From NCBI GenBank assembly GCA_011634665.1, contig WAEK01000007.1, positions 1,138,001 through 1,202,000 on the forward strand: DNA of 64,000 nt. The letters run 5' to 3'. Below the pieces are notes generated by a model. The model had not been told where the DNA came from and did no database searches. It saw nothing but the letters and a program-made list of their open reading frames with translations. The stretch is from Mortierella sp. BCC40632. Its lineage: Eukaryota > Mortierellomycota > Mortierellomycetes > Mortierellales > Mortierellaceae. Position 1 is the first letter of the stretch; each line of letters starts with the position of its first letter. The position numbers and the translations under genes are program-made. Below are positions 1 through 42,619 of the stretch, one piece after another.

Positions 1-456
1 AGACAGAAGTAGAGACTCTCCGTCAGTCAAGTCGGATTTGAAGCAAGTTGTTGAAAAATGGGAGAGATAGAGAGAAAGAAAGAGGAGACACATCCGGCGA
101 CCCTTCGGATGCTTCGTTGGGGGTGTTCTTCTGAAGGTTCCTCCATTACTTGGCTCTCACCGCTCGGAGTGTCCGAGACAGTAATGAGGTCCATGCGAAA
201 GACGAATCCACGAATCGAGTTCATGTTCCTATTACTGAAGCTAGCTGTGAGAATGGTTTTGTGCAGCCTAGGGAGACCTAGGGGGAAGACTATTGACAAC
301 TACAGCAACGAGTACTATTGCATGCATGGTCTCTTCTGTGGCTTCATGAGTCCGTCCGTTAGTCCCTTTTGGAGAGAGCGGAATGAGAAGGGACCAAGCA
401 AGAAATGACTAACGATGAGAGTTCATCCTCTTTGAAAAAAAAAAAAAAAAAAAGGA
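1..456. other. 5' flank without a supported gene
   Basis: No coding region here can be supported. A 116-codon open frame on the plus strand and a 90-codon one on the minus strand overlap each other and show no family resemblance. The stretch ends in a run of about 18 A (436-453) that stops three bases before the ATG of the next gene, so it probably holds that gene's promoter and leader. Confidence 0.5.
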
Positions 457-951
457 ATGAGCACGCTGCTCTTCTCCCCTCCTCTTCCCCTTTCCACTCC
501 CAGCTCTTCCTACAGATCTAGGCCTGACAGACCATTTCAAACGATGCATGGTTCAACAAACTGCAAAAAGGGCGAGGCGTGGGCCAAGCACTTATGCGGT
601 CACTCTGAGAGGGGTGCCGATGAGGTCGATGGCCACATGACAACAACCAGCTCTCACAACGGCAAGAATCAGAATTTGGAGACAGGGTCATGCTCGCTCG
701 AGATTCCATCCTCTTCTAAGGCTAGCCGACAGCAGAGAAGAGTCGGGCAGACCAAACAGGTTGCCCGCACCCTAGGCGTAATGGTGCTGTCGTCAGTGCT
801 CTGGGCAGGGCTCATGCACTGGGGCATTCTTTCCAAGGGAGGGTTGTCTGGGGAAGGAGGAGGAGGAGACCAGACAACCATCGGCCCGACCGAGTCGATT
901 GAATCTTCATCTCCATCTTTCCTGCACTTCACTCCTCCAACACTCGACCAG

Positions 952-983
<32 letters not shown>

Positions 984-3109
984 CCTCCCCAGCAGCCTCG
1001 AGAACAGTGCTCCTTCAACAGGACTCCGTTCTTCGCCGCTGCTTGTCTCTTCCGAGTCCCCTTCACGATTCTCAACCAATCGTCCTCATGCAACCAAGTC
1101 TCTTCCAACTGACACCAGTGACAACAACTCGAACAGCGATTACTGCAGAGATTGCATTAACAACTCTCAGGACAACAACCCCTTTGCCCCCTTTCTGCCT
1201 CGACAAACCCAACGCACACCGTCTCTCTCAGTCCACCCATCCACTCTCCAGAACGACTTTGCCCAGCGCCAGGAGGACGTGACAATGAACCCAGAACCGA
1301 TTGTGTATCAGTACACGATTTATTATCCCGGCAATATCCCCCTTGTCCTCACCGCAGGCCACGGAGGCAGTTGTGTCCCTGGGAGGACAGTCAACCTGTC
1401 AATGACCCACAACTTTACGCGAATACCCAATCTGGATGCCGTCTCGACCCCATTGACTGTAGCCGACTTCTCTACGCCTGTCCACCGTAAAGATAGTTCC
1501 GATCCCGATCTCTTTCCTCGGATGCCTCCCAGGGACAGGTCCCAAGGCGGCAGGTTCCTAAAAGACCTTAACACCCATTTGATGGCAGTCAATATCGCGA
1601 ACGCTGTCGCCTGCCTAGTCAACGTACCCGAGAATGCCAGCGCAGACATTACCCTGCCTGTCGATTCTAATAGTATCTTGAAGCACTGCATGAAGCAAGA
1701 ACCGTTGGGGGATGGGTATTTCGACGAAGAGTTCTTTCCTACACCTATCCCATCGCCGAACAGTCCTTCGGCCAAACAGAGTCGGCTAGCACCAACCCCC
1801 ACTGTGGTGCGAGATCCATCGATTGCTCCACAGAAGAAGAGACAGTCAGGACCCCCGCTCTATATTCCACATGTGGTTGTCTTTCAAGTCCGAAGGGAAT
1901 ATGTAGACGTGAATCGAAACCTTCAGGGTGAGAACGCAGTTGCCGAAGGAAGCCTTGAGGCGGAGGCTGCATGGAGAGAGTATCACGATGTGATCGACCA
2001 CGTCCAAAAATTGGCCATGCAACAGGGGTTGAATCAGCAGGAGTGTCTAGATCATTGTCCACAACAACAACAGTATCCTCAAGGCTTACTGCTAGATATC
2101 CATGGTGAGTCTTCGCAACGGATGCAGGAGTGGTGGCGCGTCGCTAAAATATGCAGTCGTCTTCTTTGTGCTAACTCCTACATGCTGAAAAGGTCATGCG
2201 CATAGTACGAACTTGATTGAAATTGGATACCTCTGGGATGAGAGCGTCTTGGGGCTGAATGCTAAAGAGGTGGATAAAGAAGCCTCCAGGCTGGCAGAAC
2301 AAAGTAGCATTCGATCCCTTATCCTACGAGAGACTTCACCACAAATGGCTGAGACTCCCAAAGACTCGACTGCGATGCCATTGCTTTCGATGCAGTCGTC
2401 CCCGTCCTCACCCTTGCCTACCAGCTACTTGAGAGACCGCCAGCTGCCCTCTATAGACGTCGATGCCACCACTAAGAATATGACTTTATCAACTCTTTTA
2501 TGGGGGAGAAACGAATCACTTGGGGGGATGCTTGGGTCGCAAGGGTTGGGGTGCGTCCCTAGTCCGGAACATCTTCGTCCTTGCGACCAGTGTACCTTTT
2601 ATTCTGGCGGATATACAATCCAAAGACATGGAAGCAGAGATACAATAGGCAAGAGTGTCTCAATGGATGCCATTCAGCTCGAGTTCCCAAGCACCCTCCG
2701 ACAAGTTGACAAGGTACAAGCACGCAAGATTTCTCTGAAAATTGGAAGAGCAGTTGTCAATTTTATGGGACGGTATTACAAAGGCATCTTTACTGGTGCG
2801 TCTACCACAGGAAACTTAGACTTGATCACGCAATTTCTGGAGGAAGGAAAGGATTCCCCGCAAAACAACTCCAGTCAGATGCCAATGAGGCCAGTGCGAG
2901 CACGAACAGCACACTCTCAGGAGCAATATTTGAATGAGCCTGTACCACGGCAACTGTCAGTCAAGTCATATGACTCTTCAGACGACTCCGATCACGATTC
3001 CCATGGTCTACCAGAGGGCTCAAGTGACATTAAAGATGGGGCAGAAATCAAGGGAGATAGGAATCTTGGCTGCCGACCTGAAATTTCACGCCATACAAGT
3101 CGTCTCTGA
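457..3109 (+). CDS. N-formylglutamate amidohydrolase-like protein, membrane-anchored
   Basis: Two exons, 457-2104 and 2193-3109, encode 854 aa. The intron has a GTGAGT donor and a CTAAC branch point and restores the motif DIHGHAHSTNLIE. Family marks in order: TAGHGG (about aa 299-304), RREYVDVNRN (479-488), WREYH, DIHGHAH (547-553), YSGGYTIQRHG (about 686-696) and DAIQLEFPSTLR (about 709-720). These match the FGase family (PF05013), zinc-dependent amidohydrolases related to M14 peptidases; His and Asp in the GHGG and DIHG motifs would be metal ligands by family knowledge. A hydrophobic segment (about 105-125) after a polar N-terminus suggests a type II signal anchor. A poly-Asn run (about 167-177) and Ser-rich linkers are low complexity. 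The start is the first ATG; one at 544 is an alternative. The real substrate is unknown. The C-terminal 100 residues are disordered and acidic. Confidence 0.85.
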
Positions 3110-3530
3110 AAACCGTAGCACTATGTGAACAAATGAACCAAGTCTTGGTGAATAATCTGAAGGATTCACCCGATTGGCTGGTGACGGGTGGGAAAGGAAG
3201 GGTGTAGATGATGACTAGCAGGTTTCAAACTTGTAGACTTTTACCACAGCCAACGATTCTTGAATAAATTTAAATACGCGAAAGATTTGGTTGTAATTTG
3301 GAAGGGGTCATCCAGCCACGAGTTTATCTGTGTTTTGTGCCTGAGGTTGAATCTGTTGAGTAAATGTTCCAGTTTTGAGGTTAAGAAAGGGCCACACTTG
3401 GGTCAATCAGTCAAAAGTCCCTAAAAAAGGGCATTCTCTAAGCGCCGAATTGGAAAGCAAATGACCATATACTACTATCTTGTCTAGTTGACCAGAACCA
3501 TAAGCAAAGAACATTTACAGTATATCAAAC
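3110..3530. other. Intergenic spacer
   Basis: About 420 bp between the amidohydrolase-like gene and the start of the large inverted repeat. No open frame of note and no repeat seen. It should hold the 3' end of the upstream gene (an AATAAA-like string lies near 3263). Confidence 0.5.
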
Positions 3531-3656
3531 ATATGCTGTACTTTGTAAAGATTATTTGAGGTGAGCTTGTCGGAAATTGCAGTCCTAGGAGACTCATGAA
3601 TCCTTGGCAGATGACTGTTGTCTGAGGTCGGTCTTGGTTGAACATCTTGGTGGTGT

Positions 3657-4043
3657 TTGCTCAGTGCCCACGGCGCTCATATCTGTCCAAGTTTGTATAC
3701 ATGTTTATGTCAATTTCTATGTTCATTTAGACTCAGAACCGTAGTCCAGACCGAGTACGAACTGTTTTTCACGGTCCTGATTACAATACAAATGGCTACA
3801 CATCCGGGAGCGGCTCGGCTCGAGAACAGGCTCGTGGTTTTTGCGAATGAAAAGGAGGAGAACAAAGCGGAAGGGACAAAAAAAGAGGAGAACAAGGTGG
3901 AAGGGACAAAAGAGGAGAACAAGGTGGAAGGGACAAAGGAGAAGAACAAGGCGAGAGGGATAAAGGAAGAGAGAGAGGAACAAAGACATAAAGAAGAGGA
4001 CAAGAATGACCGCGAGTCGGCCACAGAAGAAGGCATGACGTAG
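3657..4043 (+). other. Doubtful 128-codon open frame with Lys/Glu-rich tandem repeats
   Basis: The frame carries about three copies of a nine-residue unit like EENKVEGTK followed by a charged tail. Its counterpart in the other arm (11393-11091) is identical over the first 65 or so residues, then shifts frame where one A is missing. Low complexity and the broken partner argue against a gene; conservation of the first half simply follows the arm identity. Confidence 0.15.
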
Positions 4044-5226
4044 GAGTACTCGTTCCTAGGAACCTCGACCATAAAAGAAAAGAAAAGGAAAGGAAAAGCC
4101 TGGCTCTTTTGGAAGGTCTTCACGCAATCGTTGGATTTGATCCGCACGTTGTTGAGAGAAGGAGAGTCGCTTGTCTCGACTTTGACAAAGAGATGGAGTG
4201 ATTAAAGACTTGGATAAAGGATATGACGGTCAAGAGAGGATTTGTATGCGTGAGAGAGAGATAAAAGAGCACTGGCATAAAGAGGATCACCGCGTGTGGT
4301 CATGATACGGCGCTCTGTCCTGTCCAAGAGATGCCGAGATGGATTAGAAGAAAAGGATGACCATGAGGTGGTTCTTTGGACTGTAGAGTTGTCAAGATGT
4401 CAAAAGATATTATATATTATTATTACTATTGTTTATTGTTTATTACTTGGCATTAGTAAGACCCTGGTCCTGTTGTTCGTCTGCGCTGATGGGGCCCTTT
4501 GTCCGTTGGATCCTGCGTTGTCGACTTGGATCAGCTTGTGGACCACATCTTGAGGCCAGATCTACAAGAGTGGCCAAGGATAAGAGGAGACATTAGACAG
4601 CACCAAGTCCCAGGTGATCCCCTCCCCTCTCCCTCCTCCCCCCCTCCCCACGAGGCGTGTGTTCTCACACCTCGCCCGCATCCACCCACTCGCCTACCTA
4701 CCCACCTACCTACCTGTCTACCTCCCTCTTACCTCCCTCTTACCTTCACCTGTTCACCTTCCTCTTACCCCGCCCCACCCCCCACCTACCCGAGAGAGTA
4801 CGCCCGCTTGGTATCCTACCCTCCCTCCCATGGAGAGAGCATCTTAACTCCTTCCCAACCTCCAGCCCTGGTGAGAAGACACTCTCCCCATCTACCGTTT
4901 GCGGAGCATACCCTCTTATGCCCACATGGTAATCCTACCCGCCCACCCATGGGGAGCGCCTACCCCCTCCCAACCTCCGCCACGGGGGTACACGCCCACA
5001 CCATGTTTACCATTGTGGGGCATATTTCCGCTTTGCCATTCCCCCTCCTCCTCCCCCTCCTCCTCCCCCCTCCTCCTCCTCCTCCTCCTCCCTCCCACTC
5101 CCACTCCCACTCAATCCTATGCCTCCCCCTCTTCTTGCCACACGAGAGCACACTATCCAGCAGGGAAAGGGGATGGAATACACCCTTCCGGTGCTGGTAG
5201 GCTGCCTTCACAACCTACCTGAAAGA

Positions 5227-5320
5227 TCCTGATACCTAGTCCTGATACCTAGTCCTGATACCTAGTCCTGATGTCCACTCCTGATGTCCACTCCTGTACC
5301 CAGTCCTGTATCCAGTCTCG
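5227..5320. repeat. Short tandem repeat, left arm copy
   Basis: Imperfect units of 14-16 bp built on AGTCCTGATACCT (three copies), then CACTCCTGATGTC (two copies) and degenerate versions. The mirrored copy is at 9745-9840. Confidence 0.8.
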
Positions 5321-5398
5321 ATGGATGTATTGTGTCTATTGCTATTAGTCCAACAAAAGAGAAACGAAGCAAGAAAGGTTGGGTAGTACGTGTTCTCG

Positions 5399-6190
5399 AA
5401 CAAAGAGCATAAACGACAAAAGGAAAAGAAAAGAAGAGAAAAGAAAAGAAGAGAAAAGAAAAGAAGAGAAGAGAAAAGAAGAGAAGAGAAGAGAAAAGAA
5501 AAGAAGAGAAGAGAAAAGAGAGGATAAAGAACAGTCAGAGAAACAGCCAGACAAACAACAGACAAAAAGAACAACAACAGCAGCAGGAAGCAGGCAAAAG
5601 GCAAAAAGCAAAAAGCACAAGACAAAAGGTAAAAGAAAGAAAAAGAAAAAGAAAAAGAAAAGAAAGAATAGGGAGGAGAAAACAAACGCTAAGTCGCGCA
5701 CGGCACACAAGAGGAAAGACTTGGGCTCGGACTCGACGGTAGACCTTGGTACTCTCAAACTACCATGCAGGAAAGTTATTCTCACAGTCGTACTTACCTA
5801 TGACCAAGACTTCCTGGACGAGGCTGACCTGAACTGGTGGTGGTGGTGGCAAAACTAGTTGTGGTGAGGCGGCTGTGGTGGAGGTGGCTGTGGTGAAGTG
5901 GAGGAGGAGGAGGAAGAGGAGGAGGAGGAGGAGGAGGAGGAGGAGGAGGAGGAGGAGGAGGAGGAGGAGGAGGAGGAGGAGGAGGAGAGTGGTGGTGAAG
6001 AAGAAGAAGAAGAAGAAGAAGAAGAAGAAGAAGAAGAAGAAGAAGAAGAAGAAGAAGAAGAAGAAGAAGAAGAAGAAGAAGAAGAAGAAGAAGAAGAAGA
6101 AGAAGAAGAAGAAGAAGAAGAAGAAGAAGAAAGGGGAAAAAATAGTGGCGATGAGGAAAGATAGCGAGCGGGAAAAAGACTCGTGACTGG
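5399..6190. repeat. Polypurine block with GGA and GAA microsatellites
   Basis: Almost 800 bp are strongly purine-rich on the plus strand. AAAAGAAGAG-type repeats (about 5410-5525) are followed by a mixed A/G-rich stretch, a GGA array (about 5900-5987) and a GAA array of about 45 units (5997-6131). The open frames through it encode only runs of E, K, R or, on the other strand, F, L, S and P, so they are repeat shadows. Confidence 0.9.
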
Positions 6191-7216
6191 CAAGGAAAAG
6201 AGAGTGCGCAAGAACAGCAGATGACTCTGGCTCGGGACCCGTGTCGGCCAGGACCCAGCACAAGGTCCTCTGTCTGCCATCGCCGCTCTGCCTAGAAAGA
6301 GAGAGAAAGAGAGATAGAGATAGAGATATAGAGATATAGAGATATAGAGTGGGTGGGCAAGTGAGTGAATGAAAGAAGAAATCACTGAGCGTTGCATGAA
6401 AAAGAGAAGCAGAGGGCGACTATGGTCATCCATGAGAGGAAGGCCATCCCAAGAACGCTTTCACCATGATGGCATGCCAGATCTGGAGCCTGCACACCAT
6501 CCCACTCGAGCGAGGGAGACTCCACCAAGGGTACGGACCTTTGGCACATATCGAGAAGTGAACAGTGTTGATAACAACCATCGGTCGTTCAGCAGACACC
6601 CACCAGACTGAATCACCGCGGGAAGACAGAGGCAACCGACGGAAAGGAAGCAGACTGAGGGGAGCGGAAGAAAATGTAGTGAATAGCTGAATAGCTGATC
6701 GCCGTCCAGCGACCCTGTTCCCTTGTGCGTGACAATTGGTTCCTCATTCCTTTATTCTTTTGACATGGGTAAGAGGCAAGAGCTGATGACTAATCCTTCA
6801 CTCTTACTCTTCGTTTTTACCATCGAACTAAAAGACCCGGTCAAGGCTCTGACCCAGGCTTCTGGCCACTCTGACAGACAGAGTCGCTGTTCACAGATTG
6901 ATAGGTATGACGCATGAATAAAAAAAAAAAAAAAAAAAAAAGAGGGTGGGGAACTACTGACCAAAACTGGCTGACAATAGAAATTCTGGGCTGTGTTCAT
7001 GCGAGGTGGGCAGCATAAACGGAATAGACGAATCTGCACAGCAAGATCTGAGCGGAAAGAGTGGTAAGACGAGTGATAGGCAGCGAACCAGCCAAAACGA
7101 TTCATTCCCCTTTATCTCGCCCTATCTCATCCTTTCTCAAGCTCTCTCTCGCCCTCCCCCCCCACACTTACTCACCCTCTATCCTTCTCTCTCTACACTC
7201 TCTTACTCTCTTTTTT

Positions 7217-7253
<37 letters not shown>

Positions 7254-7343
7254 TTGCTGCTGCTACTGCCGATGCTATTGCCGTTATTGTCCGTTGGACG
7301 TGCTGGTGAATGCGGTTGGCTCACACATTCTGAGCCCTGCCTC

Positions 7344-7712
7344 GATGTCCCCTCTCAGTAGCAAACAAAATGTTCTGTTCAACAAAAGACCCATCCAGCC
7401 TCGGGATGGCTGGACGTTCTCTGTGTACTCTATGTTACTCATTGAGGTCAAGAGGGCATTATGCAAAATTATGAAGCCTTGGCAACCAAGCGGACCATGA
7501 AATGTAAGGGTCTGTGCCACGTAAAAAGAGACAAAACGCGAAAGAGAACCAACGGTGACGGCAGGGGACTGATCAGAGGGAAAATCATTTGAAGGCAACA
7601 AAAAAAATGCCTCACTCGCAAAGTTTCTTTTTACCTACCCTGAAATGGCTGTGCCTCTCGGCATAGACAAGGCGAAAAGAAGAATCTGCGAGGAGGGCAA
7701 TATCAGTGCACA
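7344..7712. other. Unique loop of the inverted repeat
   Basis: The 369 bp between the two arms is not palindromic. It contains a small hairpin with 7-bp stems (7394-7400 with 7408-7414) and two open frames of about 100 codons that run out of or into the arms and look like chance. No promoter or gene recognised. Confidence 0.8.
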
Positions 7713-7796
7713 GAGGCAGGGCTCAGAATGTGTGAGCCAACCGCATTCACCAGCACGTCCAACGGACAATAACGGCAATAGCATCGGCAGTAGCAG

Positions 7797-7828
<32 letters not shown>

Positions 7829-8879
7829 GAAAAGAAAATAAGAGAGTGTGTGTAGAGAGAGAAGGATAGAGGGTGAGTAAGTGTGTGGGGGGAGAGGGCG
7901 AGAGAGCGAGAAAGGATGAGATAGGGCGAGATAAAGGGGAATGAATCGTTTTGGCTGGTTCGCTGCCTATCACTCGTCTTACCACTCTTTCCGCTCAGAT
8001 CTTGCTGTGCAGATTCGTCTATTCCGTTTGTGCTGCCCACCTCGCATGAACACAGCCCAGAATTTCTATTGTCAGCCAGTTTTGGTCAGTAGTTCCCCAC
8101 CCTCTTTTTTTTTTTTTTTTTTTTTTTTATTCATGCGTCATACCTATCAATCTGTGAACAGCGACTCTGTCTGTCAGAGTGGCCAGAAGCCTGGGTCAGA
8201 GCCTTGACCGGGTCTTTTAGTTCGATGGTAAAAACGAAGAGTAAGAGTGAAGGATTAGTCATCAGCTCTTGCCTCTTACCCATGTCAAAAGAATAAAGGA
8301 ATGAGGAACCAATTGTCACGCACAAGGGAACAGGGTCGCTGGACGGCGATCAGCTATTCAGCTATTCACTACATTTTCTTCCGCTCCCCTCAGTCTGCTT
8401 CCTTTCCGTCGGTTGCCTCTGTCTTCCCGCGGTGATTCAGTCTGGTGGGTGTCTGCTGAACGACCGATGGTTGTTATCAACACTGTTCACTTCTCGATAT
8501 GTGCCAAAGGTCCGTACCCTTGGTGGAGTCTCCCTCGCTCGAGTGGGATGGTGTGCAGGCTCCAGATCTGGCATGCCATCATGGTGAAAGCGTTCTTGGG
8601 ATGGCCTTCCTCTCATGGATGACCATAGTCGCCTGCTTCTCTTTTTCATGCAACGCTCAGTGATTTCTTCTTTCATTCACTCACTTGCCCACCCACTCTA
8701 TATCTCTATATCTCTATATCTCTATCTCTATCTCTCTTTCTCTCTCTTTCTAGGCAGAGCGGCGATGGCAGACAGAGGACCTTGTGCTGGGTCCTGGCCG
8801 ACACGGGTCCCGAGCCAGAGTCATCTGCTGTTCTTGCGCACTCTCTTTTCCTTGCCAGTCACGAGTCTTTTTCCCGCTC

Positions 8880-9670
8880 GCTATCTTTCCTCATCGCCAC
8901 TATTTTTCCCCTTTTTCTTCTTCTTCTTCTTCTTCTTCTTCTTCTTCTTCTTCTTCTTCTTCTTCTTCTTCTTCTTCTTCTTCTTCTTCTTCTTCTTCTT
9001 CTTCTTCTTCTTCTTCTTCTTCTTCTTCTTCTTCTTCTTCTTCTTCTTCTTCTTCCACCACTCTCCTCCTCCTCCTCCTCCTCCTCCTCCTCCTCCTCCT
9101 CCTCCTCCTCCTCCTCCTCCTCCTCCTCCTCCTCTCCTCCCTCTTCCTCCTCCTCCTCCACTTCACCACAGCCACCCTCACCACAGCCGCCTCACCACCA
9201 CAACTAGTACACCACCGCCACCACCACCACCAGTTCAGGTCAGCCTCGTCCAGGAAGTCTTGGTCATAGGTAAGTACGACTGTGAGAATAACTTTCCTGC
9301 ATGGTAGTTTGAGTACCAAGGTCTACCGTCGAGGTTGCCAAGTCTTTCCTCTTGTGTGCCGTGCGCGACTCAGCGTTTGTTTTCTCCTCCCTATTCTTTC
9401 TTTTCTTTTTCTTTTTCTTTTTCTTTCTTTTACCTTTTGTCTTGTGCTTTTTGCTTTTTGCCTTTTGCCTGCTTCCTGCTGCTGTTGTTGTTCTTTTTGT
9501 CTGTTGTTTGTCTGGCTGTTTCTCTGACTGTTCTTTATCCTCTCTTTTCTCTTCTCTTCTTTTCTTTTCTCTTCTCTTCTCTTCTTTTCTCTTCTCTTCT
9601 TTTCTTTTCTCTTCTTTTCTTTTCTCTTCTTTTCTTTTCCTTTTGTCGTTTATGCTCTTTGTTCGAGAAC
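8880..9670. repeat. Mirrored polypyrimidine block with TTC and CTC microsatellites
   Basis: Inverted partner of the block at 5399-6190: a TTC array of about 47 units (8914-9055), a TCC/CTC array (about 9063-9160) and TTTTCTCTTC-type repeats (about 9540-9645). Unit counts differ slightly from the other arm. Confidence 0.9.
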
Positions 9671-9744
9671 ACGTACTACCCAACCTTTCTTGCTTCGTTT
9701 CTCTTTTGTTGGACTAATAGCAATAGACACAATACATCCATCGA

Positions 9745-9840
9745 GACTGGATACAGGACTGGGTACAGGAGTGGACATCAGGAGTGGACATCAGGACTAG
9801 GTATCAGGACTAGGTATCAGGACTAGGTATCAGGATCTTT
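9745..9840. repeat. Short tandem repeat, right arm copy
   Basis: Reverse complement of the repeat at 5227-5320: GGACTAGGTATCA units repeated three times next to two GAGTGGACATCAG units. Confidence 0.8.
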
Positions 9841-11520
9841 CAGGTAGGTTGTGAAGGCAGCCTACCAGCACCGGAAGGGTGTATTCCATCCCCTTTCCCT
9901 GCTGGATAGTGTTGCTCTCGTGTGGCAAGAAGGGGGGAGGCATAGGATTGAGTGGGAGTGGGAGTGGGGAGGGGAGGAGGAGGAGGAGGAGGAGGAGGGA
10001 GGAGGAGGAGGAGGGATCAAAAATGCAAAGGAAATATGCCCAACAACGGCAAAACATGGTGTGGGCGTGGCCCCGTGGCGGAGGTTGGGAGGGGGGTAGG
10101 GCTCCCCATGGGTGGGGGGCAGGATTACCATGTGGGCATAAGAGGGTATGCTCCGCAAACGGTAGATGGGGAGAGTGTCTTCTCACCAGGGCTGGAGGTT
10201 GGGAAGGAGTTAAGATGCTCTCTCCATGGGAGGGAGGGTAGGATACCAAGCGGGCGTACTCTCTCGGGTAGGTGGGGTGGGGGCGCAAAAAGAGGAAGGT
10301 GAACAGGTGAAGGTAAAGGGAGGAAAGAGGGAGGCAGACAGGTAGGTAGGTGGGTAGGTAGGCGAGTGGGTGGATGCGGGCGAGGTGTGAGAACACACGC
10401 CTCGTGGGGAGGGGGAAGGAGGGAGAGGGGAGGGGATCACCTGGGACTTGGTGCTGTCTAATGTCTCCTCTTATCCTTGGCCACTCTTGTAGATCTGGCC
10501 TCAAGATGTGGTCCACAAGCTGATCCAAGTCGACAACGCAGGATCCAACGGACAAAGGGCCCCATCAGCGCAGACGAACAACAGGACCAGGGTCTTACTA
10601 ATGCCAAGTAATAAACAATAAACAATAGTAATAATAATATATAATATCTTTTGACATCTTGACAACTCTACAGTCCAAAGAACCACCTCATGGTCATCCT
10701 TTTCTTCTAATCCATCTCGGCATCTCTTGGACAGGACAGAGCGCCGTATCATGACCACACGCGGTGATCCTCTTTATGCCAGTGCTCTTTTATCTCTCTC
10801 TCACGCATACAAATCCTCTCTTGACCGTCATATCCTTTATCCAAGTCTTTAATCACTCCATCTCTTTGTCAAAGTCGAGACAAGCGACTCTCCTTCTCTC
10901 AACAACGTGCGGATCAAATCCAACGATTGCGTGAAGACCTTCCAAAAGAGCCAGGCTTTTCCTTTCCTTTTCTTTTCTTTTATGGTCGAGGTTCCTAGGA
11001 ACGAGTACTCCTACGTCATGCCTTCTTCTGTGGCCGACTCGCGGTCATTCTTGTCCTCTTCTTTATGTCTTTGTTCCTCTCTCTCTTCCTTTATCCCTCT
11101 CGCCTTGTTCTTCTCCTTTGTCCCTTCCACCTTGTTCTCCTCTTTTGTCCCTTCCACCTTGTTCTCCTCTTTTGTCCCTTCCGCTTTGTTCTCCTCCTTT
11201 CATTCGCAAAAACCACGAGCCTGTTCTCGAGCCGAGCCGCTCCCGGATGTGTAGCCATTTGTATTGTAATCAGGACCGTGAAAAACAGTTCGTACTCGGT
11301 CTGGACTACGGTTCTGAGTCTAAATGAACATAGAAATTGACATAAACATGTATACAAACTTGGACAGATATGAGCGCCGTGGGCACTGAGCAAACACCAC
11401 CAAGATGTTCAACCAAGACCGACCTCAGACAACAGTCATCTGCCAAGGATTCATGAGTCTCCCTAGGACTGCAATTTCCGACAAGCTCACCTCAAATATT
11501 CTTTACAAAGCACAGCAAAT

Positions 11521-11826
11521 GCCATTTAACTGCCAATTTTTTTTTTTTTTTTTGCTTGCAATCCCACTGCTCTCTCATTGGACAAGGCTTATCCAATCGA
11601 CCGTTTCTCTTGGAAGTCTTGCTCCTATCTCATTGCTAAGACTCACTTACTGAATTGACAATTCGACTACATGCCAACTAAGGACTAAACGTGAGGCATT
11701 TGAGGCGGTTGATATAGGTTCCAACATGAAAGAAAACTTCTCGTTTAAAGCGCATCAGGAATATTTGATTCTATTCACGGAAGCTATATTATCTCTATTG
11801 TCAACACTCTAGACTAGGCTTTTATT
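11521..11826. other. Spacer between inverted repeat and UTP25
   Basis: About 300 bp with a T-tract at 11537-11553. No gene seen; it should contain the UTP25 3' end region. Confidence 0.5.
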
Positions 11827-15253: not shown

Positions 15254-16555
15254 ATGGACAAGAAGGCAAACGCATATGACCCAAAGAAGGCGCTCAGGAC
15301 AGTCTTTGGCAACAGCCCTGACCAACGTAGGCCATAGACAATGAAATCAAGCAGGAGCAAATGTAGCCATCTTCATTCTCATGTCCTTTTGACTAACTCC
15401 CTCTCTCCCTCCCCATTTCTACCTGACTTTCCTTTCTATGCCACACTCGCTCTAGACATCCTGAACGTTGTCAGAGAGTCGTGCCAGGAGGCTTTCAGTC
15501 TTCCGTCATTCAACACAACCCTCCAGACTATCAAATCTCACTTCTTTGATCGAAACTATGACGCCGTGTTTCAGAACCCTGAACATTTACCTGTTTACTC
15601 GGCTCGCTACGCGCCCAGTCGAGCACTGTGCTACTATCACCTCTTTCTGGAGCATCCAGTTCTGATGAAAATCCTAGAGGGAGGGCCATCAAATATTCTT
15701 TGCATTGGATCAGGAGCCGGAAGCGAACTTGTTGGTATCACTGCTGCCATGGTACATGCTAACCCTGTTCCCAAGATCAAAAAGAAAAAGGCAGTCTCAA
15801 AGACTCAGGACAAAGTCGAATCCCAGGAGGAAGTGAGTAAACAGCAAGAGACCGATCAAAGCAAAGAGGTATTTGCCTCTGTAGAGCCCGTGAACGAGGC
15901 ACCCCAACCATCACAGGAGGCTGTCCCATCAGAAAAGGACCATGACACCAACACGCTCGGAATGGAGAAACTTTCTGTGGAGGAAGGAGCCGCAGACCCC
16001 ACTACAGCATCAGAAGCGACTGGCTCTCCGATCACAACTATCTCCAAGAAAAAAGGCAAGTCAAACAGGCACCGGGTCACCATTGTCATGCAGGATTATG
16101 TGGACTGGTCTCCCATCCTTACTCCAATGGAAGATGTCATTCGACGTCAGATGGCTCTGGGACCTGAGAGACTAAAGTGCGAGACCGAGGTTGGAAATGT
16201 CCTGGATCTGTCACCGTCGCTGCTGGAAAGAATTGCCAAGACAGATCTGATCACATTTATGTTTGTCCTCAACGAGCTCTTCCAGGACAAGAAAAGGACC
16301 ATGTTGCTTGTAGCCAAGATTGTTGCAGCTATGCCTTCAGGTGCTCATATGTTGGTCGTCGATAGCGCAGGATCGTTCTCGAATCTGAGGGTGGGCGAGC
16401 GGGTGTACATGGTCTATATGCTACTAGATCATCTCAGGGATCTTGAAATTGTCTATCAGGATGACTCGACTTGGTACCGGTGTCCACCTACAGTGACTTA
16501 TCCACTTAAGCTAGAGAACATGCGGCATTTCATTCGCATTTATAAGAAGCTATAG
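15254..16555 (+). CDS. BMT6: BMT6-like 25S rRNA (uridine-N3)-methyltransferase
   Basis: Two exons, 15254-15326 and 15456-16555, encode 390 aa. The family (PF11312, yeast Bmt6, which methylates U2843 of 25S rRNA) is a SAM-dependent Rossmann methyltransferase. Exon 1 gives the typical basic start with DPKKALRTVFG. After the join come HILNVVRES, ARYAPSRALCYY and the SAM-binding glycine motif NILCIGSGAGSEL at about aa 104-116, then a charged insert (about 140-220), VIMQDYVDW, LITFMFVLNELF and a C-terminal MRHFIRIYKKL. The long unspliced frame beginning at 15341 was not used because its first 38 residues are intron read-through with a good TCTAG acceptor. No in-frame ATG exists upstream of 15254 before a stop, though an extra 5' exon cannot be excluded. 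Size matches yeast Bmt6 (365 aa). Confidence 0.85.
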
Positions 16556-36413: not shown

Positions 36414-37989
36414 TGGGAGGGGATGCAGACGCGAGGGAAGCTGCAGTCGAGCTGTATGAACTGCATTATCCGTCAGTGGATAAAGCTTCCTCCTTTGTAG
36501 CTGGGATTGCAGTGTATTGCTCGACACTAATCCTAACTAAAAGCAGCAACGATGTTCAAAAAAGAGCACTCCTCACGAACCCCATTAGTCGAATACCGAG
36601 GAACATCCTAACTGCCTTCAGGTTCCCCCCCCCCCTTCTCCTCTCCCAATCCTGTACGATGTACACAGACAGAATGGTCGACCCTGTGCTACTTTCGCGT
36701 GTGATCACGCATTCCCAGGAGAGCCAATGGCGTGATGGGGGCTTACTGGCCTGGTGTGAATTTCAGGGGAGGCAGTGGACTAACGTGGGGTACATAAGCT
36801 GCTGGTGGCGAGATATAGGCTCATCTACCAGTGTGCACCCACTTTGGTTTGTTGTGTACTACGGGAAATGGAGGACCGATTATCAAGATCTCTAGATGGT
36901 TCGGGAATGTGTTATGCACTCGGGCGTTGCAAGGGCAAAGAGACGCCACGGGCACGCCCCTCTCCCAGGGTCGGATGCAAGGGACAAGGTTTGGGTAGTG
37001 AGCAGGGCCCATCACTCGACCTATGGAAGCAAACACGCATTCCACAGACTAGCACTGGGAATGGCTGCAGCATGTTTACTAGCCCTCCGTGCTGCCTGTA
37101 TTTCTTTAACTTTTTCCTGGTCTAGCCCATTTCCAGCCAAAACGGCGCAACACTCTTGACATAACAATGTTTTGTTGACCCGCCCTCCTCCATACAAACC
37201 CATTCTCCAAACATTGATGGTGCTCGGTAGCTGTTATGATTGTGTTCAAAGCTCTCGGTTTGGCATTCTCCCAGGAAACCCAAGCGTAAACACTTGATTG
37301 GGCCATGCTTTTGGTGATGGGCTTCATTCACACGGATAGCACAAGGGAATGCTTTGGACCGTCATCCATTACGCTTGAATGTTTGCAGTAAAATTATTCA
37401 AAACATGAGATTGCCAAAGTCGAGTCTTGAGCACAATGACCAAACAAAAGGCCCCTCTTGTCAGTCATACAATTGTCCAGTGCAATGCAGGGTGCGCCGT
37501 TTTGGCCTCATTTGTGCTGCATTGGAAGATGGGAAGAGTTTTGTTGTCACTTCGGTCAAAGCAAATGTTTTTCCAACTGCTAGGGGATGAGGACAGGTCT
37601 ATCAAGTGGTAGTACCTTGAGAGCCATATTGGCGTGTTTGTGAAGCTTGACTGATTGTGCAGCTTGTTGACTAGCCTACCATTGGGGTTGTTTGCAGACC
37701 CGGCAGGTCTGGACTTTCTTCCACGGTTTCCTGGTGCACCTCTACAGTAGTGCCCTGACTGCTCTCCTCTTCCTCTATGCGTTGCATATCGGAGGCAGGG
37801 CTCGCTCGAGGGTAATCATTTGACACGGTTGTCCTCTTACTCTTCAGCTTGCGTTACATTCAGCTTTCTCCAATCGGTTGGTGACCTAGCCATTCATTCG
37901 TGGGACATTGCTCTCTGCTAGGTGTCTACCGCGTAGAGGTAAGTGCGGCCTGGACCGCAGTATACTCCATGGCAATCGTCGCGAATTTG
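35296..37989. other. Intergenic region
   Basis: About 2.7 kb with no gene I can support. An A-tract of about 29 lies at 36382-36410. A 160-codon frame at 36413-36895 has no recognisable features and is probably chance. Confidence 0.5.
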
Positions 37990-37996
37990 TATAAAA
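37990..37996 (+). promoter_or_regulatory. TATA box of subtilisin gene 1
   Basis: TATAAAA about 130 bp upstream of the start codon, followed by a CT-rich leader. Confidence 0.6.
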
Positions 37997-38124
37997 CCAA
38001 GGTCAAGAAGCACCATGGCAACATTTCTCCTCACTCCTCTTCACTCCAGCTTTTCTCTTCCAACCTTCCCTCCACCAACTTCCTCCCCATCCCAAGCAAT
38101 CTCTTTCAAGCGATCTCTTCCAAA

Positions 38125-39407
38125 ATGAAGTACACCTGCTTTGTCATCGCCGCCTGCGTGGCCCTTTTCAGCTCCTCCTCGGCTGCTCCTTTGGTCCGTA
38201 GCAATGCCGGTAAACCCATCCCGGACTCCTACATCGTCGTCCTCAAGGAAGGAAACAAGGTCGAGGACTTTATCCCCAAGTTTGATGCCATTGCTCGCCG
38301 CACGAACGGTCGTGGTCGCAAGCCTACCATTGGCCAGCAGTACCGCGCCATCCAAGGTCTTTCCGTCACCGTCAACCAGGCTGCCTTGAAGGAGCTTCTC
38401 GCTTCTGATGAGGTCGAGTATGTTGAGGAGGATCAGATCGTGACTCTGAGTGGAGTCCAGAACAACCCTCCCTCCTGGGGTCTTCCTCGCGTCTCGCAGC
38501 GCAACCTCAACAACAACGCTCCCTTCTACTACCAAGACCAGGCCGGCTCTGGTGTCACCGCTTACGTGATTGACACTGGTATCAACACTGCCCACGTCGA
38601 CTTTGGTGGTCGTGCCACCATGGGTGCCAACTTCATTACTGGCTCCGCCAACACTGATGAGAACGGTCACGGTACTCACGTCGCTGGTACCATCGGAGGA
38701 AACAACTATGGTGTTGCCAAGAAGGTCAGATTGGTCGGTGTCAAGGTCTTGAACGCCCAGGGTCAGGGTGCCTTCTCGGGCATCATTGCCGGCATGGACT
38801 GGGTTGCCCAGCGCGCTCGCGGCACCAAGGCCGTTGTCAACATGTCTCTCGGTAAGTCACAGTTACTGTGCTCATTGTGCGCGTGCAATTTTAATAATCC
38901 AGGGCAAGAGGTAGAGTCTCGTGCTAAAATATCTATCCTCTAAACTCAACTCTAGGTGGTGGTAAGTCTCAGGCCGTCGACTCGGCTGCCACTCGTCTCT
39001 ACAACGCCGGTATTCCCTTGGTTGTTGCTGCCGGAAATGATGCCAATGCCGATGCTTGCAATGGTTCGCCTTCTGGTGCTTCTGGAACTCTCACTGTTGG
39101 TGCCTCGGACCGCTATGACAGAATCGCTACCTTCTCGTCCTGGGGTAGCTGTGTTGATATCTTTGGCCCCGGTGTTGACATTCTCTCGGCCTGGATTGGT
39201 TCTTCGACTGCAACCCGCTCCATCTCTGGTACCTCGATGGCCACTCCTCACGTCGCTGGTGTCGCAGCTTTGTTGTTGTCCACCGATGCTTCTTTGACCA
39301 GCCCAATGGCCGTCTACAACAAGCTCATCCAGACTGCCACCAACAATGTTGTTACTGGTAACCTTCGTGGTTCGGCCAACCGCTTGGTCTTCAACAGCGC
39401 TGTCTAA
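38125..39407 (+). CDS. Secreted subtilisin-like serine protease 1 (S8, proteinase K type)
   Basis: Two exons, 38125-38851 and 38956-39407, encode 392 aa. Signal peptide at aa 1 to about 20 (hydrophobic core, then SSSSAAP). An inhibitor I9 propeptide follows (SYIVVLKEGNKVEDF to VEYVEEDQIV), then the S8 domain from about aa 113. The catalytic triad is visible: Asp150 in VIDTG, His182 in NGHGTHVAG and Ser336 in GTSMATPHVAG. Extracellular protein degradation for nutrition or host contact is the family role. The intron (104 bp) splits the codon after MSL in the substrate-binding MSLGGG loop. A second, intronless paralogue lies 2 kb downstream in the same orientation. Confidence 0.96.
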
Positions 39408-40903
39408 GCGAATTCAACTCCTTGGATTTTGTTCCACTCATGAATAGGGCGACCGTTTCTTTTTTCTATGGTCATATCAATTTTACCTGCCCTCAACCAT
39501 TTTTTCTATTCAAAGTATTTTACTGTGCCTGGTGCGCATGCAGTTCATCCTGACTGGTCAGGATACAATAAAAAAAAGAAATTTTTTTTCTATATTTCAG
39601 CTTGCGATTTGTGAGGTTGTGTCGTCTGTCCCATAAAAATCGTAGACACCATTTGTCACCATAGTCATCGTAGTCACCGCGTCGCGTTGTCAAACATGAT
39701 GAAGCGGCCCGATACGGTCCATTATTGCCTGGCATGTTGGATCAGAGACAAGAAAGGAGAAACAAGAGGAGAGAGGAGGGGGAGAAAGGTTAGGAGAGAG
39801 AGGATGGGCGAGAAGAGAAATGAGGAAGATGGGGGGTTCAAAACATCATCTGACAAGTGAAGGGCGGGAGCCTAGTTCTAGCTCTTGAAGCACAAATGTT
39901 GGAGGGAAATGCAGAAATTACAAGAGGCAAGAGAGCTTGCATAAACATTGAGTTATCTGAGCATTAGTCATTCCTCGTGCAGAGACTGTTTATTCACGTA
40001 CTCGCTCTGTTTCAAGGAATGCCTAGGTTGGTATGGCCCAATAAGGGAAACGTGCTTCCTTTCCCCGGGAAGACGGGAAGAGGGCATTTCTGGTTTCTGG
40101 GGAACAAGAACCGAAAAAAAGGAGGAGAAGGGGCATTTGTGGCAGTGCAGAAAAGAGAACCTTTGATGCCAGGCTGACTGTCAGGAAATCAAACCACTTG
40201 CTAGGATGCCTAGCAAAAGACGTGAAAGGCATATCCTCCACCCATCTAGATCTCGTCGGGTTCCAAGCGCTTGCCGTTTTCCCATGATGTCTAGATAGTA
40301 CGTGTTGTACAAAAGGAATGAGGGTACATGCCTAACGCGTTTTTGGGCAACGGTGTGTATTACACTATACAGTCAGGGGATATGAGCCAATTACAAAGCA
40401 TCGATCGACCCACTCTCTAGCGTTTCCGGATGACACCGTAGGTGGGAACTGGCTCTAGTGGAGAATGCAAAAAAGGGTCTACAGTGATGGGAAAGTGAAG
40501 CGGGGAAGTCCGGTTACCTTGGGAAGCTATGTAATATCTGTTATGCATCCTTGTGTTATTAAGGTTATAGTGCTATATAGCCTTGATACTGTACCTAAAG
40601 CGCGGAAGATCCACATTGTGCGTCGAGGCGATTATGCGTTAGAGCTTCAACGAAGAATCGACTGATGGGAAACATGAGGGATGGACTGTAGATGCACCTC
40701 GAACAAAGTGTTGTTTTGCTCTAGAACCAAATGCAGGAGGCACGGATACACTATAACCAGGGGGGGGGGGAGGGTGCAGCGTTCGAGCCTTCTTTGCGAT
40801 ACGACACGGCCAGAGCTGATCGGTGCTCTCAAATTACATTTTCAACTGTCAAGTCCGCACCTCAAAATGAATGTACATTGGGCGAATTTGCTCTTAGAAG
40901 GGA
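39408..40903. other. Spacer between the subtilisin genes
   Basis: About 1.5 kb after subtilisin 1. It starts with the presumed 3' untranslated region of that gene and then shows only short frames on both strands. No gene recognised. Confidence 0.5.
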
Positions 40904-41015
40904 CAGAGTCGCACGGCACGGAGGAATAACCTTTACAACTAGGATAGCAGAGTTGTGCGGAGGAATAGTCCTTTGCTGTCTAGGGCAGAGAGTCATACGG
41001 AGGAATTGCCTCCGT
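40904..41015. repeat. Three degenerate units with about 40-bp period upstream of subtilisin 2
   Basis: The string CGGAGGAAT occurs at 40919, 40958 and 40998, each preceded by a CAGAG and a short variable stretch ending GYAC-like, and the first two followed by CCTTT. Spacings of 39 and 40 bp give nearly four helical turns. The block ends about 405 bp before the subtilisin 2 ATG and could be a set of activator sites. Confidence 0.6.
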
Positions 41016-41241
41016 TGCTTCTTGATCCCACTGGGTTAGTTGGGCAGTGCATGTACTTGAGTTGGCCTAGAGCCTGCTCAATTGCTCTTGAGATATGAGG
41101 GCGATGTTTACAGTGGCATCTTATGGCAATCTCATGCAAGGGCAATGGGGGAAAGGGACCCTGCCAGTAACACCCCTGCCGAACACTGTTTTTGCCCTGG
41201 AAAGTAACAGAGCCCCTGTTTGTTCGATGGCATTCTTTTGT

Positions 41242-41249
41242 TATAAAAA
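41242..41249 (+). promoter_or_regulatory. TATA box of subtilisin gene 2
   Basis: TATAAAAA about 175 bp upstream of the start codon; the leader in between is rich in CCAC and CT. Confidence 0.6.
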
Positions 41250-41419
41250 CCACGAGGCCAATCCACATTTTGCTCCTCAGAACCACCACTCCTCTCCCAC
41301 TCCACAGTAACCAACACCCACCACAGCTTTGACAAGCAACTAAAAGTGAAGTCCTCCTACGATCACGACCCACTCTCAACAAAACCCTTTCAACCCCTCT
41401 CAAAACCTCCACCATCACC

Positions 41420-42619
41420 ATGAAGTGCCTTTCCCTCCTCGTTGTTGCCTGCTTGGCCTGGTCCTCCGCCTCGACCGCCGATGCTGCCACCTTCATCAAC
41501 AATGGCGCTGGAACTACTGCTGTCCCTGGCTCGTTCATCGTTGTCCTCAAGGACTCCAAGAGTGTCAAGAGCTTTGAACCCAAGTGGAACAACATGTTGC
41601 GCCGTCACAACAACCGCAACGGCCGTCGCCCTAGAATGAACCACAAGTTCAAGGCCATTCCTGGTTTCACTGTCACTGGCTCGAACGCGACCTTGACTGA
41701 GCTCCTCAACATGGATGAAGTCGAATACATCGAACAGGATGCTATTGCTTCCATCCAGGCCACCCAGGCCAACCCCCCCTCCTGGGGTCTTCCTCGCGTC
41801 AGCCGCCGTGGCGCCCTGAGCGGCGGTGCCGCTGCCTATAGCTTCCCTGACTCGGCTGGTCAGGGTGTCACTGCCTATGTGATTGACACTGGTATCAACA
41901 CTGCCCATGTCGACTTTGGTGGTCGTGCCACCATGGGTGCCAACTTTATCCGCGGCTCCCCTAACACTGATCAGAACGGTCACGGTACTCACGTCGCTGG
42001 TACCATCGGAGGAAACACCTATGGTGTTGCCAAGAAGGTCAGATTGGTCGGTGTCAAGGTTTTGGATGCTCGTGGCCAGGGTGCCTTCTCGGGCATCATT
42101 GCTGGCATGGACTGGGTTGCCCAGCGCGCTCGCGGCACCAAGGCCGTTGTCAACATGTCTCTCGGTGGTGGTGCCTCTCGCGCTGTGAATGATGCTGTCT
42201 CCCGCATGGTTAGCGCCGGTGTCCCTGTGCTTGTTGCTGCTGGTAACGACCCCAATGTGAACGCCTGCAATGGTTCGCCTTCGGGCGCTAGTGCTGCTTT
42301 CACTGTCGGTGCCTCGGATATCCGTGATAACGTTGCCAGCTTCTCTTCTTACGGTAACTGTGTCGATATTTTTGGACCTGGTGTCCAGATCACCTCTGCT
42401 TGGATTGGTGGCTCCAACTCCCGCAACACCATCTCAGGCACTTCCATGGCCACTCCCCACGTCGCTGGTGTTGCCGCCTTGTACATGGGCGCCAACCCCA
42501 ACCTCCGCACTCCCCAGCAAGTTTACAGCGCCTTGGCAAGCAGTGCCATCAAGAACGTCATTCGCGGTAACACCCGTGGCGCTGCCAACCTTATGGTCAA
42601 CAACGGCGTCAACAACTAA
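41420..42619 (+). CDS. Secreted subtilisin-like serine protease 2 (S8, proteinase K type)
   Basis: A single exon encodes 399 aa. Signal peptide (hydrophobic core LLVVACLAWSSAST), I9 propeptide (SFIVVLKDSKSVKSF to VEYIEQDAIA) and S8 catalytic domain. Triad: Asp156 (VIDTG), His188 (NGHGTHVAG) and Ser342 (GTSMATPHVAG). Paralogue of the gene at 38125: the propeptides are clearly diverged, but about 290 bp around the Asp and His motifs are nearly the same at DNA level, and the intron of the first gene is absent at the matching position. A start after CACCATCACC fits a fungal initiation context. Confidence 0.96.
   Translation: MKCLSLLVVACLAWSSASTADAATFINNGAGTTAVPGSFIVVLKDSKSVKSFEPKWNNMLRRHNNRNGRRPRMNHKFKAIPGFTVTGSNATLTELLNMDEVEYIEQDAIASIQATQANPPSWGLPRVSRRGALSGGAAAYSFPDSAGQGVTAYVIDTGINTAHVDFGGRATMGANFIRGSPNTDQNGHGTHVAGTIGGNTYGVAKKVRLVGVKVLDARGQGAFSGIIAGMDWVAQRARGTKAVVNMSLGGGASRAVNDAVSRMVSAGVPVLVAAGNDPNVNACNGSPSGASAAFTVGASDIRDNVASFSSYGNCVDIFGPGVQITSAWIGGSNSRNTISGTSMATPHVAGVAALYMGANPNLRTPQQVYSALASSAIKNVIRGNTRGAANLMVNNGVNN

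What the first reader, a model, noticed from the sequence alone, without database searches (positions are those of the whole stretch)
3531..11520. Eight-kilobase inverted repeat: two 3.8-kb arms around a 369-bp unique loop
The sequence shows 3531-7343 repeated in reverse complement at 7713-11520 with only small differences. No coding gene, transposase, terminal motif or target-site duplication is visible, so this is not a familiar transposon with short inverted ends. Such a structure can extrude as a giant cruciform or hairpin. If transcribed through, it would make a dsRNA stem of nearly 4 kb, an ideal Dicer substrate. It could be a programmed hairpin-RNA locus, a fold-back element, or the scar of an inverted duplication.
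Basis: partly seen in the sequence, partly recalled or inferred. Interest (0 to 1): 0.9.

Follow-up and report, generated by a model that had tools for sequence, protein, structure and literature searches.

The report
Dispersed family of giant non-coding palindromes
A soil fungus carries an eight-kilobase mirror-image stretch of DNA that is one member of a scattered family of such gene-free loci, in most of which the two halves of a locus resemble each other more than their relatives elsewhere, which makes the question of what keeps such structures alive testable.

Summary
The inverted repeat is real: arms 3530-7343 and 7713-11521, 97.2% identical, around 369 bp. The host is a Mortierellaceae fungus. 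The locus belongs to a dispersed family (E1). I found 15 palindromes with arms of about 1 kb or more, ten with E1 arms. E1 modules are mostly 59-77% identical between loci. All 16 adjacent module pairs, at 12 loci, are inverted; eight loci hold a single module. The 'unique' loop is a conserved spacer found in six other units at five loci, flanked by A/A arms here, A/C at two loci, C/C at three: the arms look homogenised around an old spacer. Trees group arms by locus for 9 of 9 E1 pairs tested but 3 of 6 pairs of a second family, E2. Best reading: an ancient non-coding palindromic repeat kept symmetrical by arm-to-arm gene conversion, spread partly by segmental duplication. Dicer, Argonaute and RdRP genes exist; hairpin RNA is possible but untested. 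Assembly error, a lone scar and a centromere are unlikely.

The parts
3530..7343 (+). left arm of the palindrome
   Evidence: BLAST self-comparison, 97.16% to right arm; alignment
7344..7712 (+). spacer (loop), 369 bp; conserved family element, not unique
   Evidence: HMM of five spacers hits C7, C15s, C17 twice, C15b, C15c, C15d; no hit in reversed controls
7713..11521 (-). right arm of the palindrome
4050..6801 (+). E1 module, A type, left copy (start set by the training segment; conserved sequence begins near 4110)
   Evidence: nhmmer 1527.9 and 586.8 bits; this locus is in the training set; conservation profile
8247..11004 (-). E1 module, A type, right copy
   Evidence: nhmmer 1448.3 and 577.6 bits
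4136..4147 (+). recurrent boundary motif TTTGATCCGCAC, left
   Evidence: extended motif with up to 3 mismatches 28 hits genome-wide versus 2 for the reversed control
10907..10918 (-). recurrent boundary motif TTTGATCCGCAC, right
5194..5225 (+). conserved box CTGGTAGGCTG..CAACCTACCTGAAAG, left
   Evidence: 23 genome hits with up to 3 mismatches, 0 in reversed control
9837..9868 (-). conserved box, right
5900..6131 (+). (GGA)n and (GAA)n tracts in the left arm; mirrored as (CTT)n and (CTC)n at 8911-9159
   Evidence: tandem repeat finder
3530..4109 (+). outer arm segment beyond the E1 module; found nowhere else in the genome by this search
   Evidence: search of 3400-4000 gave only this locus

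Best explanation
The locus is one copy of an ancient, dispersed, non-coding palindromic repeat (here called E1): an about 2.7-kb module, a conserved spacer of roughly 300-420 bp, and the module again in reverse. Shown by comparison: the family exists; wherever two modules are neighbours they are inverted; the same spacer is flanked by A/A, A/C or C/C arms at different loci. Inferred: the two arms of a locus pair during repair and overwrite one another (gene conversion, or fold-back copying that can run past the module into flanking DNA, as in the outer about 600 bp here), which keeps each palindrome symmetrical while loci drift apart. Spread was at least partly by segmental duplication (C15c/C15d). 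Effect on the cell: probably none is required; if transcribed through, it would feed dsRNA to the fungus's RNAi machinery.
For: Family and inverted pairs. Within-locus versus between-locus identity: C7 98 vs 59-70, C17 99 vs 64-77. Arms group by locus with support 96-100 for C7, C16, C17, C28, C29a and C3b and for C15b, C15c and C15d. C15c and C15d share both of two unlike flanks (79% over 296 columns, 74% over 429), so that palindrome predates their split, yet arms within each are 97% and 96% identical and 93-95% between them. One spacer with three arm arrangements. Patchy differences between the window's arms. Of 8 places known only from the terminal motif I looked at 3: C18 proved palindromic (95.4%), C5:1672394 is a lone fragment, C10 has no module.
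Against: Homogenisation is not universal. The arms of C15s and of each C17 unit stay unlike (A/C). In family E2, C22, C3x and the inner arms of C3b do not group by locus, and C3b's inner arms are 76% identical. C28's arms (91%) are no closer to each other than to C29 arms (92-94%), although the tree groups them. Eight loci hold one module only. Repeated de novo inverted duplication would also give like arms; it is needed for C5b, whose 99.35% identical 3.7-kb arms are flanking DNA with the module in the loop, and fits the outer 600 bp of the window's arms. One genome, no reads, no population data.
Confidence: 0.72

Rival explanations
1. A family of natural hairpin-RNA genes: the locus is transcribed through the spacer, the transcript folds into a stem of nearly 4 kb, Dicer cuts it, and the palindrome is kept by selection for silencing some target.
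For: Dicer-dimer domains at three places (two in open frames of 1534 and 1114 aa), Piwi domains at three loci, RdRP at one. In E1 the spacer is as conserved as or more conserved than the arms: C7-C15s 81% vs 67%, C15b-C15c about 100% vs 91-92%. C15c/C15d arms 93-95% although flanks are 74-79%.
Against: No transcript or small-RNA data. In E2 the spacers of C6x and C6y are less conserved than the arms (66-71% vs 74-83% against C22, C3x and C18). Searches with arm pieces (window 3400-4700, 6400-6920, 7100-7720 and the C17 arm; 4700-6400 only through its C17 homologue) found outside the family only short stretches, by my reading mostly in simple repeats, so no target is visible. The conserved box shows one compensatory pair only.
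Confidence: 0.25
2. A non-autonomous fold-back DNA transposon: the palindrome is the mobile unit, moved by a transposase encoded elsewhere.
For: Long inverted arms rich in tandem repeats, recurrent inverted boundary motif, dispersed copies; E2 shows ten further convergent inverted pairs besides C18, two of them (C21) with only about 0.25 kb matched per arm.
Against: No target-site duplication seen by eye at the ends that could be judged; arm ends differ between loci and several run past the motif; C15c and C15d share flanks and so arose by segmental duplication; no coding relative found.
Confidence: 0.22
3. A centromere of the homogenised inverted-repeat type.
For: Candida tropicalis centromere repeats show the same pattern, 93% identity within and 82% between centromeres, with tandem repeats in the arms (PMC4741521, passages).
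Against: Four loci with inverted module pairs on contig C15 and at least two on C3; no conserved-box hit on C1, C2, C4 or C8-C13, of which C2 and C4 exceed 3.2 Mb; the window locus lies between ordinary genes.
Confidence: 0.04
4. A one-off recent inverted duplication (scar) with no relation to other loci.
For: The outer 600 bp of the arms were found at this locus only.
Against: Homologous modules in inverted pairs at 11 other loci and the same spacer at five other loci.
Confidence: 0.04
5. Assembly or chimaeric-read artefact.
For: 38 indel events between the arms, 16 of them in low-complexity sequence; four family loci lie near contig ends.
Against: Arms differ by 28 substitutions; palindromes of different arm identity share homologous spacers and arms at several loci, which an artefact would not produce.
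Confidence: 0.02

Closest known systems
Homogenised inverted-repeat centromeres of Candida tropicalis (PMC4741521, passages; PMC7292649, abstract)
   Same: Non-coding inverted arms of a few kb at several loci, more alike within a locus than between loci, with tandem repeats inside the arms
   Different: Not one per contig; short conserved spacer; greater divergence between loci; no kinetochore evidence
Gene-conversion-maintained palindromes of sex chromosomes (willow, PMC7023750, abstract; human Y, PMC3723533, start of abstract in the listing)
   Same: Arm-to-arm homogenisation of large inverted repeats
   Different: No recognisable gene, small, dispersed over many contigs, built from one repeat family, fungal
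Fold-back transposable elements (recalled: FB and Galileo of Drosophila)
   Same: Long inverted arms with tandem subrepeats, short middle, no coding capacity
   Different: No target-site duplication seen; ends not fixed; segmental duplication shown for one pair
hpRNA loci of Drosophila simulans (PMC10317233, abstract) and fungal hairpin small-RNA loci (PMC9757828, passages)
   Same: Inverted arms able to give dsRNA; RNAi genes present
   Different: Arms far longer than a usual fungal hairpin (recalled); no expression data, no target
Fold-back inverted duplications near short inverted repeats in yeast (PMC10622511, abstract; ODIRA PMC4689423, start of abstract in the listing)
   Same: A route by which a short inverted repeat can seed a large palindrome
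   Different: Here old and recurrent in one repeat family

Membership tests
Gene-conversion-maintained palindrome | Arms of one locus closer to each other than to homologues elsewhere | tested here: met
   9 of 9 E1 arm pairs put in a tree group by locus; E2 only 3 of 6; the A/C pairs of C15s and C17 units stay unlike
Gene-conversion-maintained palindrome | Palindrome older than its arm identity suggests | tested here: met
   Shared spacer with A/A, A/C, C/C arms; shared unlike flanks of C15c/C15d
Fold-back transposon | Long inverted arms with tandem subrepeats and no coding gene | tested here: met
Fold-back transposon | Target-site duplication at the ends | tested here: not met
   By eye at 9 palindromes, three of them judged on one side only
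Fold-back transposon | Polymorphic insertion (empty sites) | not testable with these tools
   No sister strain held
Hairpin-RNA locus | RNAi machinery in the genome | tested here: met
Hairpin-RNA locus | Transcript and Dicer-sized small RNAs | not testable with these tools
   No RNA data
Hairpin-RNA locus | Complementary target outside the family | tested here: inconclusive
   None clear; short seeds and simple repeats are not searchable this way
Inverted-repeat centromere | One per chromosome | tested here: not met
   Four loci with inverted module pairs on C15, at least two on C3, no box hit on C1, C2, C4, C8-C13; caveat: contigs are not chromosomes
Inverted-repeat centromere | CENP-A chromatin | not testable with these tools
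   No ChIP data

The most novel reading that the evidence does not exclude
The palindromes are a selected genomic architecture: a family of spacer-plus-arms loci in early-diverging fungi whose symmetry is actively renewed because the hairpin transcript (or the extruded DNA structure) has a function, with the conserved spacer and boxes as its signals and A/C arms as the state before renewal.
Probability: 0.2. Interest if true: 0.88.

Novelty: new variant of a known kind. Interest (0 to 1): 0.68.

Why it matters
Long palindromes are normally unstable and rapidly lost (recalled). One fungal genome with at least 15 of them, seven units of which show different states (A/C, A/A, C/C) around one conserved spacer, offers a natural series for measuring how palindromes arise, are repaired and persist outside sex chromosomes and centromeres. 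The fungus has Dicer, Argonaute and RdRP genes, so whether kilobase natural hairpins feed RNAi in early-diverging fungi becomes testable. Searches of open PMC papers for Mortierella with centromere (12 papers, titles and abstract starts seen), Mortierellomycota with repeat and inverted repeats (none) and Lobosporangium with palindrom- (none) showed no description of such a family; subscription papers are not covered.

Tried and rejected
Telomere link: no exact run of four TTAGGG was found (the reversed control gave 9), so no subtelomeric test was possible. Coding: 7 ORFs chosen from the arms had no Pfam match above cut-off. Known RNA: no Rfam family at gathering level in the window; two chance-level matches with a lax threshold in 3400-7720. 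RNA structure of the conserved box: 95.4% of cells paired but one compensatory pair only, inconclusive. Spacer inversion by arm crossing-over: C6x and C6y spacers match (97%) only in opposite orientation, but C6x's left flank matches both C6y flanks (78% and 72%), so it stays suggestive; the reversed spacer of C15c goes with the reversal of that whole locus. Literature searches for fungal palindromes, hairpins and gene conversion gave analogues, not this family, in the listings seen. Weak HMM hits in C6 (two), C5a (one) and C10 (one), E 2.8e-6 to 1.3e-3, were dropped because reversed controls of the first 18 loci gave 11 hits down to E 2.7e-6. One comparison script printed nothing because of a doubled option and was repeated.
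Full report
Observation. The window contains an inverted repeat with arms 3530-7343 and 7713-11521 (97.16%) and a 369-bp loop. The arms differ by 28 substitutions and 38 indel events; 12 substitutions lie in 4720-5017. In the family alignment the two arms differ at 55 aligned columns; the other loci side with the left arm at 19, with the right at 4, with neither at 32. No other inverted repeat of 60 bp or more was found in window 1-3500 or 11600-64000. Seven ORFs that I chose from the arms have no Pfam match above cut-off and no Rfam family reaches its threshold in the window.

Host and setting. A neighbouring protein (window 15338-16555) is 84% identical over 90% to one of Lunasporangiospora selenospora; the first 53 hits listed, where a name is given, bear names of Mortierellaceae genera (the family is my reading). 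The window is C7:1138001-1202000 of an assembly of 49.9 Mb in 62 contigs. The palindrome lies between two convergent genes: an ORF on the + strand ending at 3109 and UTP25 on the - strand from about 11827. C16's palindrome also lies between convergent ORFs; next to C14's single module the right-hand ORF points away (whose output was partly cut). I did not test this at the other loci.

A dispersed family. Searches with arm pieces found diverged copies on many contigs; the outer 600 bp were found here only. I examined 18 loci, the window included, and 3 of 8 places known only from the terminal motif. Palindromes by BLAST: C7 3.8-kb arms, loop 369 bp, 97.2%; C28 4.2 kb, 1171, 92.5%; C29a at least 4.1 kb, 1157, 94.2%; C17 6.3 kb, 2517, 97.3%; C16 1.06 kb, 4261, 93.8%; C3b at least 2.6 kb, 4348, 97.1%; C15b at least 2.7 kb, 365, 96.5%; C15c 2.3 kb, 294, 94.4%; C15d 2.4 kb, 306, 93.9%; C5b 3.7 kb, 3740, 99.35%, whose arms are flanking DNA with the module in the loop; C18 2.1 kb, 239, 95.4%. 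Four more belong to a second family, E2: C22 81%, C6x 96%, C3x 95%, C6y 96%, arms 1.0-1.7 kb. That makes 15, a lower bound: the search tool scores only the best candidates. Between E1 loci the module is 59-77% identical, apart from the C6/C28/C29 group at 87-96%.

Modules are inverted. A profile of the module, trained on nine of these loci, hits all 18, and 2 of the 3 motif-only places; C10 has nothing above background. At 12 loci there are two or more modules, giving 16 adjacent pairs: all opposite in orientation, none direct. In C15s I count two same-strand pieces as one arm because they are collinear parts of one module. The pairs are not independent (C15b-d are homologous, C28 and C29a are homologous, C17 and C3b are nested). 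Eight loci hold a single module or fragment: C5a, C5b, C6, C29b, C29c (cut by the contig end), C3c, C14 and C5:1672394. The conserved box, with up to 3 mismatches, occurs 23 times in the genome, each time inside one of these loci, and not in the reversed control; C18 lacks it.

The loop is a conserved spacer. A profile from five spacers hits C7, C15s, both halves of C17, C15b, C15c and C15d and nothing in reversed controls, plus a fragment at C22:760787. In the stretches searched, the other palindromes (C16, C28, C29a, C3b, C18, E2) do not have this spacer. Two arm types exist: A, and a diverged type C recognised by the profile and shared by C17, C15s, C3b, C3s and C15b-d. The arms around the spacer are A/A in the window, A/C in C15s and C17, and C/C in C15b-d. 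The simplest history is an old palindrome with A and C arms that became A/A in the window and C/C in C15b-d. Spacer against arms: C7-C15s 81% vs 67%, C7-C17 74% vs 66-67%, C17-C15s 77% vs 77%, C15b-C15c about 100% vs 91-92%, C28-C29a (another spacer) 96% vs 92-94% (gaps ignored). E2 does not follow this: C6x and C6y spacers are 66-71% identical to those of C22, C3x and C18 while the arms are 74-83%.

Homogenisation. In trees, both arms of a locus group together for C7, C16, C17, C3b (100), C28 (99) and C29a (96) and for C15b, C15c and C15d: 9 of 9 pairs that I put in a tree. C18's E1 pieces and the A/C pairs of C15s and C17 units were not in those trees; the latter are unlike by nature. C15c and C15d share each of two unlike flanks (79% over 296 columns, 74% over 429) while the two flanks of one locus do not match, so the palindrome predates their split, yet arms are 97% and 96% identical within and 93-95% between. 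Against: in E2 only C6x, C6y and C18 group by locus.

How it works. Shown: family, inverted pairing, conserved spacer, like arms within most palindromes. Inferred: arms pair during repair and one copies the other. The outer 600 bp of the window's arms lie beyond the module and were found nowhere else, so copying ran into flanking DNA, or the last event was a fold-back duplication of the kind described in yeast (PMC10622511, abstract). Long GAA and GGA tracts in the arms may provoke breaks (recalled). Transcription is unknown; Dicer, Argonaute and RdRP genes are present.

Verdict. Real, unlikely to be an artefact, not a one-off; a new variant of palindromes kept alike by gene conversion, overlapping in shape with fold-back elements and with inverted-repeat centromeres. 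Function is open.

Noticed in passing
L035, L037-L040, L021 (E2 loci on C18, C22, C6, C3): A second family of palindromes (E2), arms about 1.2 kb and gaps about 0.3-0.6 kb: ten convergent inverted pairs besides C18 in one search, two of them short; it also sits at the centre of the palindromes on C18 and C3b.
   Followed up: partly
G000 C3:186822-203933: E1 and E2 modules alternate and mirror each other over about 17 kb by coordinates, suggesting one very large nested palindrome.
   Followed up: partly
L024 and L016, C5:1699788-1710934: 3.7-kb arms, 99.35% identical, bearing an ORF of 425 aa, flank a single E1 module: a recent inverted duplication of flanking DNA around the repeat.
   Followed up: partly
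L038 and L040: Spacers of two E2 palindromes on C6 match at 97% only in opposite orientation, suggesting spacer inversion by recombination between arms.
   Followed up: partly
L009, L013, L019, L029: Four E1 loci lie within about 10 kb of a contig end, as expected if palindromes break the assembly.
   Followed up: no
window 37885-42619: Two neighbouring subtilase (peptidase S8) ORFs account for the 300-nt direct repeat, 88% identical.
   Followed up: yes
window 59193-62015: An ORF matches Mediator subunit 13 (Med13_C and MID_MedPIWI).
   Followed up: no
C1, C2, C8, C9, C19: A dispersed repeat of about 90 bp, 89-93% identical, shared with the C18 palindrome, could be a solo end.
   Followed up: no
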